From Xanthostigma xanthostigma (lineage: Eukaryota > Arthropoda > Insecta > Raphidioptera > Raphidiidae): 64,000 nucleotides of DNA. Below the pieces are notes generated by a model, which worked only from the letters and a program-made list of their open reading frames with translations, ran no database searches and was not told the DNA's origin. Below are positions 52,943 through 58,605 of the stretch, in pieces (positions within the stretch are counted from its first letter, which is position 1; every line of letters starts with the position of its first letter). The DNA is taken from the NCBI GenBank assembly GCA_963575645.1, contig OY754475.1, positions 186,001 through 250,000 on the forward strand. Direction: 5' to 3'. The translations under genes were made by a program, and so were the position numbers.

Positions 52943-55900
52943 TTAAATGTCTAACAGCACGGGCTTAGTTTCTTTGGCGCACTTCAAGACCGAGTTCAGC
53001 AATTTTACAAAACCAGTGTCTTTCGGTTTCTCTAATCCGCGCAACAAGCGATTCTTCATCACCGCAATGAACTCTCTGTTGCTGAGCTGCCCGTCGACTG
53101 CAAAAAAAAAAAAAAAAATTCAACTCGCTGCTCGTCGTCGCGCGACGAATTCGCACGACGGCACGGAAAACGCGACTTACGATTCTCGTCGAAAATTGTG
53201 AACACGACGTTGATGACGTGATCGCTGAGATCGACGTGAGCGACCGTTTTGGCCACGTGTTTGAGCGTCATTTGATCGATCGAAGCGCCGGCGATGTGAT
53301 AAAACGTCAGGGCTGTGTCGACGTCGTTTATGTTGTTCAGGAAGTGGAAGAATTTCAAATAGTCGTCTTTGGAAATTCCTCGACCGTGCTCTCGGAAGCT
53401 GAAACGCAACAACTCAGAGTTTAAGGACCGAAAACCTAAGCCGGCGTTTTGTTTCGGCGCGCTTCTACAGGAACTTACGTTTTCTTGACCCTCTTGAGCA
53501 TGCGAGCCTTCTTCTTCTGCGGATAGCCGGCGTAAGCCAGCAACAGTTCCGTAAAATCGGCTTCCGTGATCAAACCGTTCTCGTCTGGGATTTTGCGCTG
53601 AAATTCCAAGCTCAAAATCTCTTTTTGCAACTGCTGTTGAAACTCGAGAAACTTTTCTATCGTCAATTTCTGATGCTTGAACGGTCCGAAAAAGTACGTG
53701 GTCAGCGCCGAATTGACACCCTGAAAATACGTTAAATTCCCCTCAACATACTTAAGTACGAGTCGAAAGGACTTTTTCGGGAACGTCGACGGAGAAAGAA
53801 ACTTTTCGGGAACGGCGAAGGAGGAAGAAACTTTTCTGGAGCGGCGACGGAGGAAGAAACTTTTCGGGAACGGCGACGGAGGAAGAAACTTTTCTGGAAC
53901 GTCGACGGAGGAAGAAACTTTTCGGGAACGGCGACGGAGAAAGAAACTTTTCGGGAACGTCGACGGAGAAAGAAACTTTTCGGGAACGTCGACGGAGGCA
54001 GAAAATTTTCGGTAACGGCGACGGAGAAAGAAACTTTTCGGGAACGGCGATGGAGGAAGAAACTTTTCGCTGACGCTCGGAAAAACTAATTGAGACTACT
54101 ACCTTAAAAGTGTTCCCGGTGTTGGCGTGGTCTCTGTGACGCGATCCGATACTCGTCTGCTGCCTGATCAGCGTTGCCACCTTCTCGAACTCCTCGCTGT
54201 CTACGTCGCCGTCGCCGTTCAAATCGAACATGCGAAAGGCGATTTCAAAATGTCTCCGCGAAGCTACAAAAACGAAGTCGGTGTCAAATATCGATTAGCG
54301 GCCACTGAAAGACGGAAACTTTCTCTTACTTGACAGAACGGTGAGAAGAAAGATGTAGTCGGAAAACGTTATCAGTCCGGAACTTCCGAGTTTGTAAAAA
54401 ATGGAATCTTCGTCGAGCGCCAATTCGAGCTTGAGCACATTCTGTTTAAAAAGAATCAGACAAAGCTATCTTAAAACAAAGTCTACTCGGCAAAAGTCTA
54501 TGAAAAATCACAAAAAAAAAGTGAAAAAATCACAAAAAAGATTCTACTCAACACTTCAAGAAAAATAAATCACAAAAAATATAATCCCCAATCTTGTAAA
54601 ATTGTCAAATCAAATTTCTTTCGTTGGCATAATTGAGAAAAAAAACCGCTAATCTCACAGATCTGTTATAATTAGTTTCTGTGAATTATCTCGAAGCAAT
54701 ATATTCCAATACTAATCAGCCAACGTGAACGTAAAGAAAAAACCACTCGGTAATTTATAACAAATCCGTGGTTAATAAAAATAGAAATTTACGAAAATAT
54801 GAAAAACGTCCCCCCCTTCTGTGTTACGCATGCATTCAAGAAAAATTATGCAGAAACAAAATAACAATAATAAAGAAAATAAACTAACTCTTGTGGTGTT
54901 TTGCTTCCGTTCCGACTAAAACAAAGAAAACAAAAACAAAAAATCTACAGTACCTACGAATTTCTACTGAAACTATAAAACTATGTCACACTCCATACAG
55001 TGCACTAAAATAAATAAAACATCAATATTAAATTTCTGCTGTGTTGTTAATCAAATGATTTTTCGAAAGGAACTGGATATACATTTTACAAATTTCGCAA
55101 TCAACGTCGACAGCAAAAAACTTAAAAAATTCAAATCTAAAACTAAAAAAAAATCATCGACCATGCACGTGATATGAAAAGGGAAAAAAAATGTGCCAAA
55201 GACGAAAGAAAGAAATAGAAAAGTTATAATGCTTGGTGTTACCTCGGCATGATTCTGCAATAAAGAAAAAGAGAGAAAAGACATGAAGTAATAAAAAAGG
55301 TCACAGACATAAAAATAAGACAATAATAATTAATAGTTCAGTTGAAATACTTTCAGAATAATGCTTTCTCTTATACATAGACGATGAAACAATGAAAACT
55401 CGGTTTTCGCAAACAAAACAAACTCTACATTATGTCGAAACGGCGTTTTTAATAAAATACAACTTCTAGAAACAGTTCAGGATAATTCGATTTACTGGTG
55501 CAACGCAAGGCTATTCACTAAGTGCTTCTATATACACGGTGCTCCGAATTGGATGTCGACACTGCGAGTGAAATATTTAGAGCTGTTTCTCTGTTAACTT
55601 TCCGTACTGTTTCTTGAAAACAGACGTCGAGTTTGAACTGACGACCGAAAGACATTTCAAGCGCCGAACGACATTAAAAAAAATCGACTCAAACATAAAG
55701 TGTATTATACACAATTCTCGTGTCGGAACAAAAAAAAAAATAGTCTTCATTATTTCATAAATTACTATCAATATAACAAAATACATTAAACTTATATATA
55801 ACTGTACACATACAGAGTATTATCGATCGTTCAGTTATTAACTACTGGCCTATTGAAGATGGATATATTAGGCTGGAAGATTTTGGACCACCACCCCCTT

Positions 55901-58605
55901 GCATAGGATAAAATAAGAAAACCGCGAGCCCCGTCCCCGCCAATCACAAAACTTATAAGATCCAGATGCTTTAAACGGCGGGAAGTCTTATCATAATATT
56001 ATCTCTCCGCTCCCTTCGGAGGCGAAAGCGAGACAAAAATTAGAAAGAGACACGACATTTTAAAGTAGAGTTGTAACAAACCGTATGCATTCGTTACTGA
56101 GTAACGAGTACATCGTCTGACTCGAAGTAACGAATCGTTACTTACAAATTCATTTCGTTACTCGCATGTTTCGTATCGATGTCAGTTCGACTAGTTTGAT
56201 GCGGTTATACGAACACAATGTGTTATACTTATAAGTATTCATAAAGTACGAAGTCATGACTCATGTCGTATCACGTATGCGACGCGCTTTGATACGAAGC
56301 TACATGCTTATTGCTTGATGCTGTTAAGTACACTATTGTATGTCGTATGAAAAGTACCGAGTAACGTAACGATACGAAAGTAACGGGTACTGGTTCTTTA
56401 AGTACCTAACGAATACATACGGGTACACAATTTCTCGTTACTTTTACAGCTCGTGTCTTTATGCGAAAAGAAAAAACTGCCGATTGCTTCGGCGTCTGAA
56501 CAGTCGATACTCGAATGCGACAGTATAACATTAAAAAGCAACAATAACACGACGTGACACAAGAAAAAAAATTAAGTAAATAAAATAGAGGGACATTACA
56601 CACGAACATATAAAATATAGTTCAGATACTTTAAATATTTCAAGTTAACTTTGAACTTGTAATATTGTAGTGTAATGTAAATGTGAAAATACTTAATTGG
56701 AAAGATAGTGAAATAATATATAGAATGTACTTTCAACAACTTACCTTTGGATCGTATTTTTTATATTGGTCGAGACCCAGTCCTAAAAAACAACACAAAC
56801 TGTAAATTTGTACTCGATAAGGGCGAGCCGATACCGGTCGTCTTACCGATATCATCCGATGTCGGTTCTCCGGGGCGATGCCGACACGTTCTGCGTTCAT
56901 CGCTTATGCAATTCATCGTTTATTTCAAGCAAACGTTCGACGATTCTTACCGATAATGGTATCGGTACCGATATCGGCTCGGATCTGTGCGCTATTTTGA
57001 ATGAAGCGGAGAAAAGCAGAAGAACGAAGCGATGAAAGAAGAATCGATGAATTGTTAAAGAAACTAAATTACGAATGAAACGCGAGATGATGAAAAATCA
57101 ACGAATCGATAAAAGATAATAATGCATGAGTGATACTACAAAAACAAAAGAACGTCGAGAGAAAAAAATGACACATGCGATTATTACTGTTAACAACGAT
57201 ACCGACCCTCCGGCTGTTTAAGGCCCGGCGTCATCGATCTGAGAAAATCATCGGGTGTCATAAATATCTCATGGTGATCGGGATGCGAGCCTTGAACTTG
57301 TAGCGTGGCGAAATATCGAAACACTTTGTCCGGAGTCGAATAATGTCTTATGCGATTTTCATATTCTATTATCTATATATGATTTCGAAATGAAGTAAAT
57401 TCACGACGCAGCGTTCCAAGTGTTAGTCGTTGTTACGAAAGACATGCAAAGAAATACAAAATACAGATCGCCGAAAGAAGCACCCTGCATTCGATCGATT
57501 CAAGAATATGGTGTTAATTATTATTAATGTACGGGAGAGTGGAAAAAGACTTTAGGTGACGACGCATGCCATATAAACATATTACAGTTTGTACCCTCGG
57601 GCTGTTTCATTCCCGGCGTTATTGCTCGAATAAAGTCCGCAGGCGTCATGTAAACTTCGGTGCGGTCGCCATAATTTATTTTAACCGTCGCAAAGTAACG
57701 GAAGATTTTATCGGGCGTCGAAAATGTTCTGATACGGTTTTCGTATTCCATTATCTGTGCATTTTGAGGAACACAAATTCCACAAAATGAAAAACAAACA
57801 AAAAATCAACACAAAAAAAAAACAGACAAACTTGAAAGACCGATCGACTGAATGCGTCAGATTTTCGTGACAAATACTCAAAAGATAAATCAAATTTTTC
57901 ACCACATGAAATTAATTTAAAAAAATATATATATAATGCGAAATTGTACTTTCAGTGTAAACACGAATGTTTACTTACATTTAAAAAAAAAATCTCTTAC
58001 CTTACGATCACGAAAACCGATTTTTTCTCTTTCCTTTTTGTGTTTTTTGCGTTTGACTTCTTCGCCGTCCTGTTGACCTGCTTCGTTGTCGGCCCCTTCA
58101 GAAATGCTTTTGGTGGGTTCCGATATTTGCGGGCTAGCCGCATCGACTTTCGGCGTAAATTTCATCCATTTCGGGCAATATTCTTTTATTCTGCAACAAA
58201 ACAACAACTATTATTGCCAGAATTCATTTGACTTTAAGCCCTCTATACTGTCGATTCTGGCCACAATTAATCTTTTAATTGTCAAACGGTTACAACTGAA
58301 AAATTAGCTTCGACTTACACTTCAGGATCGACTGTTACATATAAAAACAGCGATCCAAGAATGAAATGGTACAGCTTAGTAACAAAGGGCGTTTTTTCTG
58401 GTTTATGTCCAAAATTTTTATAATATCTGTATTGGCCGTTTCGAGACTTGTCGTTACAAAATCTTGCATTATTTTTCTCATTGATTCTGTCATTAAAGTG
58501 TGAGGTTATTAATGCTCTAGATATTACGCCGCCGAAAGTTAATTTATTCACTGTAAATGTTAATTTCGCCGCACTCGCACATTTATTAAGTAAGCCTGAA
58601 CTCAT
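52943..58605 (-). CDS. MICU1: MICU1, EF-hand gatekeeper of the mitochondrial calcium uniporter
   Basis: Calcium sensor in the mitochondrial intermembrane space that gates MCU. Nine constitutive positions on the minus strand: 58605-58319, 58190-58001, then one of two alternative exons (57754-57595 or 57372-57207), 56782-56745, 54441-54330, 54263-54103, 53720-53479, 53398-53181, 53097-52943. The form with the upstream alternative has 520 residues, the other 522. The N-terminus is presequence-like with a hydrophobic stretch ([15 protein letters not shown]). A poly-basic patch ([11 protein letters not shown]) precedes GFRDRK, diagnostic for MICU1 over MICU2. EF-hand 1 ([13 protein letters not shown], from residue 276) and EF-hand 2 ([13 protein letters not shown], from 467) both keep their calcium ligands. 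The 2.3-kb intron between exons 4 and 5 has two candidate microexons. Confidence 0.94.
53770..54070. repeat. 29-bp minisatellite in a MICU1 intron
   Basis: The word ACTTTTC (with one variant) recurs every 29 bases at 53801, 53830, 53859, 53888, 53917, 53946, 53975, 54004, 54033 and 54062. The unit is like GAAACTTTTCGGGAACGGCG followed by ACGGAGGAA. About ten copies with point changes lie between MICU1 exons 6 and 7. The minus-strand open frame across it is a by-product. Confidence 0.95.
54889..54915 (-). CDS. MICU1: Candidate 27-nt microexon of MICU1
   Basis: A strong pyrimidine tract and TTTTAG on the minus strand precede 27 bases in phase 0 (SERKQNTTR), followed by GTTAGT, a weak donor. 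It lies in the same intron as the 12-nt candidate. It could also be a decoy acceptor. Confidence 0.3.
55243..55254 (-). CDS. MICU1: Candidate 12-nt microexon of MICU1
   Basis: On the minus strand a very strong pyrimidine tract and CAG precede AATCATGCCGAG, followed by GTAACA. In the phase-0 intron between exons 4 and 5 this would add Asn-His-Ala-Glu without changing frame. Mammalian MICU1.1, expressed in skeletal muscle, has a 12-nt microexon (EFWQ) that I recall at the equivalent junction. Confidence 0.55.
56066..56455. mobile_element. Probable MITE with iterated GTAACG words
   Basis: TAGAGTTGTAAC and GTATGCATTCGTTAC near 56066-56096 are matched in inverse near 56405-56455 (GTACCTAACGAATACATAC, GTTACTTTTACAGCTC). 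Many GTAACG/CGTTAC words lie near both ends. No target duplication was found. It sits in the MICU1 intron between exon 4 and the candidate microexons. Confidence 0.55.
56824..56981. repeat. Inverted repeat rich in ATCGGTA words
   Basis: CGAGCCGATACCGG at 56824 is nearly inverted at 56964-56981 (GGTACCGATATCGGCTCG). The 158-base unit is dense in CCGAT/ATCGG words and lies just upstream of MICU1 exon 4 in transcript order. It could be a small transposon or an RNA stem. Confidence 0.6.
57207..57372 (-). CDS. MICU1: MICU1 mutually exclusive exon, version b
   Basis: Encodes [18 protein letters not shown], a longer linker ([13 protein letters not shown]) and [19 protein letters not shown]. It lies 222 bases downstream of version a in the transcript and is 166 bases long, with the same phases. 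Open and bounded by AG and GT; the donor (GTCGGT) is non-ideal. Confidence 0.85.
57595..57754 (-). CDS. MICU1: MICU1 mutually exclusive exon, version a
   Basis: Encodes [18 protein letters not shown], then a short variable linker and FMTP-like [19 protein letters not shown]. It starts at phase 0 and ends at phase 1, exactly as version b (57207-57372). Including both would shift the frame, so the two must be alternatives. Length 160 bases. Confidence 0.9.

What the first reader, a model, noticed from the sequence alone, without database searches (positions are those of the whole stretch)
55243..55254. 12-nt microexon candidate in insect MICU1 at the mammalian MICU1.1 site
Directly seen: strong acceptor, 12 bases, GT donor, phase 0, inside the intron that joins KYDPK to NVLKLEL. 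Known: mammalian MICU1.1 carries a 12-nt muscle microexon (EFWQ), which I recall near residue 181, after the D-G-K of the matching segment. If both sit at the same junction, either the microexon is ancient or it arose twice. The inserted residues differ (NHAE).
Basis: partly seen in the sequence, partly recalled or inferred. Interest (0 to 1): 0.75.

Follow-up and report, generated by a model that had tools for sequence, protein, structure and literature searches.

The report
Likely 12-base microexon in insect MICU1
An insect gene for a calcium sensor of mitochondria probably carries a tiny 12-base optional exon in the same intron where mammals keep their muscle-specific one, but with different amino acids; only RNA data can prove it.

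Summary
On the minus strand, 55254-55243 is a 12-nt open stretch (AATCATGCCGAG, NHAE) between canonical splice signals, in phase 0. It lies in a 2303-nt intron of a clear MICU1 orthologue (449 bits to human MICU1). Its acceptor and its donor are each the best-scoring inside that intron. It is the top such module in the 64-kb window, both strands. None as good occurs in 446,002 strand-bases of the same genome. A search with the 228-nt flank finds only itself.

The intron corresponds to the human exon 5/6 intron, where exons 5' (EFWQ) and 5'' (TE) are spliced. The match holds within about two residues, in the linker between N-domain and N-lobe. The sequence is not shared (NHAE versus EFWQ), so I call it a microexon in the same slot, not MICU1.1. 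A UGCAUG (RBFOX-type) site begins 76 nt downstream.

Also found: two probable mutually exclusive N-domain exons just upstream (57754-57595, 57372-57207).

Not shown: splicing in RNA, muscle specificity, conservation in other insects, or any effect on calcium. The collections that I could scan gave no insect relative.

The parts
55243..55254 (-). candidate 12-nt microexon AATCATGCCGAG (NHAE), phase 0
55255..55280 (-). pyrimidine-rich tract and NCAG acceptor of the microexon; best acceptor inside the intron
55237..55242 (-). microexon donor gtaaca (GAG|GTAACA); best donor inside the intron
55162..55167 (-). TGCATG (RBFOX-type motif), beginning 76 nt downstream of the microexon
   Evidence: RBFOX motif as listed in PMC8909990
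54829..54834 (-). second TGCATG in the downstream part of the intron
56745..56782 (-). MICU1 exon b (counterpart of human exon 5), ends [12 protein letters not shown]
54330..54441 (-). MICU1 exon c (counterpart of human exon 6), begins [16 protein letters not shown]
54442..56744 (-). intron that holds the microexon (2303 nt: 1490 upstream, 12, 801 downstream)
57595..57754 (-). MICU1 N-domain exon a (160 nt)
57207..57372 (-). MICU1 N-domain exon a' (166 nt), duplicate of a; probably mutually exclusive with it
58319..58605 (-). first coding exon, probable ATG at 58605
58001..58190 (-). second coding exon with the polybasic [11 protein letters not shown] stretch
54103..54263 (-). MICU1 exon d, EF-hand [12 protein letters not shown]
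53479..53720 (-). MICU1 exon e
53181..53398 (-). MICU1 exon f
52943..53097 (-). MICU1 last coding exon with stop

Best explanation
The feature is a real, in-frame, optional (cassette) microexon of the insect MICU1 gene, in the intron homologous to the human exon 5/6 intron. Skipping gives ...KYDPK-NVLKLEL...; inclusion gives ...KYDPK-NHAE-NVLKLEL.... The insert falls in the linker between the N-domain and the EF-hand-bearing N-lobe. It would lengthen that linker by four residues and so tune how MICU1 responds to calcium and gates the uniporter, as EFWQ does in mammalian muscle. The very strong acceptor would compensate for the tiny exon. An RBFOX-type UGCAUG beginning 76 nt downstream is a plausible enhancer of inclusion in muscle or neurons. 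Shown: anatomy, frame, gene identity, unusual splice-site strength, no second copy of the flank. Inferred: splicing, regulation, effect on calcium.
For: Both splice sites are the best inside the intron, 12 nt apart, in frame, without a stop. Best module in the window; none as good in 446,002 strand-bases of the same genome. A strict pattern modelled afterwards on the candidate (Y12-N-YY-N-CAG, spacer, GTAA) occurs only 9 times (spacer 11) and 11 times (spacer 9) in 623 Mb. The flank matches only itself, so no repeat carries it. MICU1 orthology: 449 bits, against 137 or less for chains named MICU2 or MICU3. EFWQ after residue 181, loop unresolved in crystal structures, RBFOX2 required (PMC8909990). 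Human N-domain ~103-177 and N-lobe ~183-318 (PMC7158096). UGCAUG lies in 1.2% of 100-nt stretches of the window.
Against: No RNA evidence and no relatives to test conservation. The weight matrices are generic and recalled. The strict patterns with spacers 9 and 11 show no excess over their backwards controls (10 and 10), so such modules elsewhere look like chance. NHAE has none of the aromatic character of EFWQ. The donor lacks G at +5. I looked at five motif patterns, so the UGCAUG match is weak after correction; there is no QKI-type site within 300 nt on either side and one MBNL-type YGCY on each side. PMC8909990 itself notes that RBFOX2 expression alone does not explain muscle prevalence. 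The strict-pattern count for spacer 12 did not complete.
Confidence: 0.62

Rival explanations
1. Chance: a good acceptor and a fair donor happen to lie 12 nt apart in an ordinary intron and are never, or only rarely and erroneously, used.
For: Simulated introns reach the summed score in 1-5 of 1000, and a reader scanning many introns will find some. Strict patterns with spacers 9 and 11 show no excess over the backwards control in the whole genome. The donor lacks G at +5.
Against: It is the best of the whole window and beats 446,002 strand-bases of the same genome. It sits in the one MICU1 intron where humans splice microexons (PMC8909990).
Confidence: 0.15
2. A constitutive microexon: always included, so every MICU1 protein of this insect carries NHAE and there is no switch.
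For: The microexon acceptor (12.46) is stronger than that of exon c (8.24), and the donor of exon b is near perfect (12.20), so inclusion could be the default.
Against: The skipped form is closer in length to the human chain. The microexon donor (6.44) is weaker than that of exon b, and both human microexons at this site are optional (PMC8909990).
Confidence: 0.15
3. The acceptor serves something else: a recursive splice (ratchet) point, or an alternative 3' terminal exon read from 55254 (NHAEVTPS..., 67 codons).
For: The frame stays open for 67 codons after the acceptor.
Against: No GT directly at the acceptor, and exon b joined to AATC does not rebuild a GT donor. The intron is short for ratcheting (recalled). 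No AATAAA or ATTAAA between 55242 and 54442.
Confidence: 0.05
4. A sub-question that overlaps with the best explanation: a real microexon, but not inherited from the common ancestor with vertebrates. It would be an independent gain at a spot in the protein that tolerates short inserts.
For: NHAE and EFWQ share no residue in register. Humans also splice an unrelated TE exon at the same place.
Against: Same intron, length and frame in both; a possible RBFOX link in both. One insect genome cannot tell the two origins apart.
Confidence: 0.45

Closest known systems
Mammalian MICU1.1 microexon (exon 5', EFWQ; PMC8909990)
   Same: Same gene, same intron (LGLDQ on one side, SIFY on the other), 12 nt, in frame, at the linker between N-domain and N-lobe; RBFOX-type motif near
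   Different: Residues NHAE, not EFWQ; splicing, tissue and calcium effect not tested here
Human MICU1 exon 5'' (TE, two residues; PMC8909990)
   Same: Tiny in-frame insert between the same two exons
   Different: 6 nt and other residues. The paper says that alone it does not alter MICU1-mediated activation of MCU in HeLa cells, though it also says that it lowers the synergy with MICU2
Zebrafish micu1 microexons (DreEX0046514, DreEX6103867; PMC13281805, passages)
   Same: Microexons of the same gene outside mammals
   Different: Vertebrate; less included in srrm3 mutant neurons; their position was not seen in the passages read
Drosophila microexons (PMC8042270, passages)
   Same: Insect microexons of 12 nt exist (CG6621, shi)
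   Different: MICU1 and CG4495 do not occur in the main text; supplementary tables could not be read

Membership tests
MICU1 orthologue | Best match MICU1 over MICU2/MICU3, near full length | tested here: met
   449 bits over 354 of 361 query residues to human MICU1; 137 bits or less to chains named MICU2/3; one chain named only EF-hand domain-containing protein scores 176. EF-hands
Microexon | 3-30 nt exon with canonical AG and GT, frame kept | tested here: met
Microexon | Spliced into mRNA | not testable with these tools
   no RNA data
MICU1.1 exon 5' | Lies in the intron between the exons with LGLDQ and SIFY, at about residue 181 | tested here: met
   exact to about 2 residues
MICU1.1 exon 5' | 12 nt, in frame | tested here: met
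MICU1.1 exon 5' | Encodes EFWQ | tested here: not met
   encodes NHAE
MICU1.1 exon 5' | Inclusion driven by RBFOX | tested here: inconclusive
   UGCAUG begins 76 nt downstream; no RNA test
MICU1.1 exon 5' | Muscle-enriched inclusion and higher calcium affinity | not testable with these tools
   needs RNA and protein work
Recursive splice site | Acceptor directly followed by GT | tested here: not met
   CAG|AATC
Mutually exclusive exons (a, a') | Neighbouring homologous exons of the same phase, frame lost if both or neither are used | tested here: met
   160 and 166 nt, both 3n+1; 34 of 55 aligned columns identical
Mutually exclusive exons (a, a') | Exclusive use in mRNA | not testable with these tools
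   no RNA data

The most novel reading that the evidence does not exclude
The MICU1 intron between N-domain and N-lobe has been a slot for a 12-nt, RBFOX-tuned microexon since before insects and vertebrates split. What is conserved is the slot and the four-residue length, not the residues, so linker length sets calcium sensitivity. In this insect the slot sits next to a mutually exclusive pair of N-domain exons, so one gene could make four MICU1 proteins with different gating.
Probability: 0.22. Interest if true: 0.75.

Novelty: new variant of a known kind. Interest (0 to 1): 0.5.

Why it matters
How EFWQ, far from the EF-hands, raises calcium affinity of MICU1 is unexplained (PMC8909990; PMC7575740). 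An insect insert of the same length at the same junction, with other residues, would suggest that length or flexibility of the linker matters more than sequence, and would open the question to insect genetics. It would also make MICU1 a case of a microexon slot shared by insects and vertebrates.

Tried and rejected
Relatives: the search for related loci with the MICU1 protein found none in viral contigs or genome contigs; these hold viral and prokaryotic contigs, so conservation stays untested. The MICU3-like gene on C13 was read as a paralogue control: by eye it has no intron at the matching place.

Repeat origin was rejected for the microexon: its 228-nt flank matches only itself (that search skips very common words). 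The upstream intron does hold a dispersed repeat at about 56452-56066.

Ratchet site and alternative terminal exon were considered and judged unlikely.

A first strict pattern (0 hits) was wrongly designed and could not match the candidate; its count is not used. The corrected pattern with spacer 12 did not complete, nor was spacer 10. Spacers 11 and 9 were answered.

No structure prediction was run: the spliced protein is not one unbroken reading of the window, and I could not tell whether the stated rule would allow it.

Literature: ten searches, most with capped lists (15 of 748 papers listed, 15 of 43, 20 of 24, 5 of 6, 3 of 1,326). In those listings and in the passages that I read I saw no insect MICU1 microexon and no mutually exclusive MICU1 exons. 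Most papers of subscription journals are missing from that library; the 2016 MICU1.1 paper was not read.

Full report
What is there. The minus strand of 58605-52943 holds a complete-looking MICU1 gene. Exons a to g (57754-57595, 56782-56745, 54441-54330, 54263-54103, 53720-53479, 53398-53181, 53097-52943) join in frame to 361 residues and a stop. With two further N-terminal exons (58605-58319, 58190-58001) the reading is 520 residues with one stop, at the end. phmmer against solved structures gives 449 bits to human MICU1 over 354 residues, 137 bits or less to chains named MICU2 or MICU3, and 176 bits to one chain named only EF-hand domain-containing protein. The window is insect: a cuticle protein domain and zf-AD domains. 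The genome has 623 Mb in 28 contigs; the 13 large ones seen sum to about 622 Mb.

The candidate. Between exons b and c, at 55254-55243, lies ctctttttctttattgcag|AATCATGCCGAG|gtaaca, 12 nt, phase 0, coding NHAE. Both skipping and inclusion keep the frame to the natural stop.

More than chance. With generic weight matrices (recalled, not trained on this species) the acceptor scores 12.46 and the donor 6.44; each is the best of its kind inside the 2303-nt intron. Of 1000 simulated introns per model, 5, 1 and 4 reach the summed score (orders 1 and 3 trained on the intron, order 5 on the whole strand), and 0, 0 and 1 reach both. In the whole window, both strands, it is the best of 3 in-frame open modules that pass the cut-offs, with 18.89 against 15.75 for the next. 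In 23 other stretches of the genome, 446,002 strand-bases, 0 reach it; the best is 17.79. These 23 are 18 stretches (of 20 asked for; two do not exist) plus five loci fetched for other reasons. A strict pattern built afterwards on the candidate occurs 9 times (spacer 11) and 11 times (spacer 9) in the whole genome, against 10 and 10 for the backwards control. So such modules are very rare, but those two lengths show no excess over chance. The spacer-12 count did not complete. The 228-nt flank finds only itself.

Same slot as in mammals. PMC8909990 (outline, passages, sections 2.1, 2.5 and 4.4, figure legends and part 1 of 2 of the discussion read) says that murine MICU1.1 carries EFWQ after residue 181, that human MICU1 also has a two-residue TE exon, and that primers in exons 5 and 6 span the site. 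The human primers read LGLDQ and SIFYTL, which match exons b and c here. In the full-length human chain the residues are D177, G178, K179, K180, I181, S182, Q183, and 12 residues lie between K180 and SIFY; 12 also lie between the insect junction and SIFY. PMC7158096 (passages) cites Q185* and a 478-residue form; I infer that the TE insert lies before Q183. Together the slot is the same to about two residues. The same paper gives the N-domain as ~103-177 and the N-lobe as ~183-318, so the insert lies in the linker. PMC8909990 says that crystal structures did not resolve this loop.

Likely working. Inclusion would add four residues to the linker. In mammals EFWQ raises calcium affinity and lets the uniporter open at lower calcium; how is unknown (PMC8909990; PMC7575740, passages). 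NHAE is chemically unlike EFWQ, so the same effect is a guess that rests on place and length. RBFOX2 silencing blocks MICU1.1 in mouse C2C12 cells, though the paper notes that RBFOX2 expression alone does not explain the muscle prevalence. Here a UGCAUG begins 76 nt downstream, with a second one further on; no GCAUG lies in the 300 nt upstream. UGCAUG occurs in 1.2% of 100-nt stretches of the window, but I looked at five motif patterns, so this is a hint only.

A second splicing choice. The genome search showed an extra match to exon a. Exon a' at 57372-57207 repeats exon a: 34 of 55 aligned columns identical, differences by codon position 14, 8 and 33 over 53 codons, no stop, both lengths 3n+1. 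Using both, or neither, breaks the frame. This is the signature of mutually exclusive exons. Its donor (GTCGGT) and acceptor look weak by eye. Flies have MICU1 isoforms A and B, which both rescue the mutant (PMC6506686, passages); I could not see how those differ.

Paralogue control. The MICU3-like gene on C13 splits this region elsewhere; by eye it has no intron at the matching place. So in this genome the slot was seen in MICU1 only.

Limits. There is no RNA, no second insect and no mammalian gene sequence in these tools. Scans of viral and prokaryotic collections found no relative, as expected. I put reality of the microexon near 0.8, optional use near 0.6 and common origin with the mammalian exon near 0.3; these are judgements, not computed.

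Noticed in passing
57207-57372 and 57595-57754, minus strand: Two homologous MICU1 N-domain exons, same phase, 34 of 55 aligned columns identical: probably mutually exclusive exons.
   Followed up: partly
53774-54069: 29-bp tandem repeat, about 10 copies, in the intron between MICU1 exons d and e; it gives long open frames on both strands.
   Followed up: no
about 56066-56452, minus strand: Dispersed repeat of about 390 bp in the intron upstream of the microexon, 76-82% identical to three copies in the fetched stretches of the genome.
   Followed up: no
L014 and L016 (C13): MICU3-like gene with a different exon structure from MICU1.
   Followed up: partly
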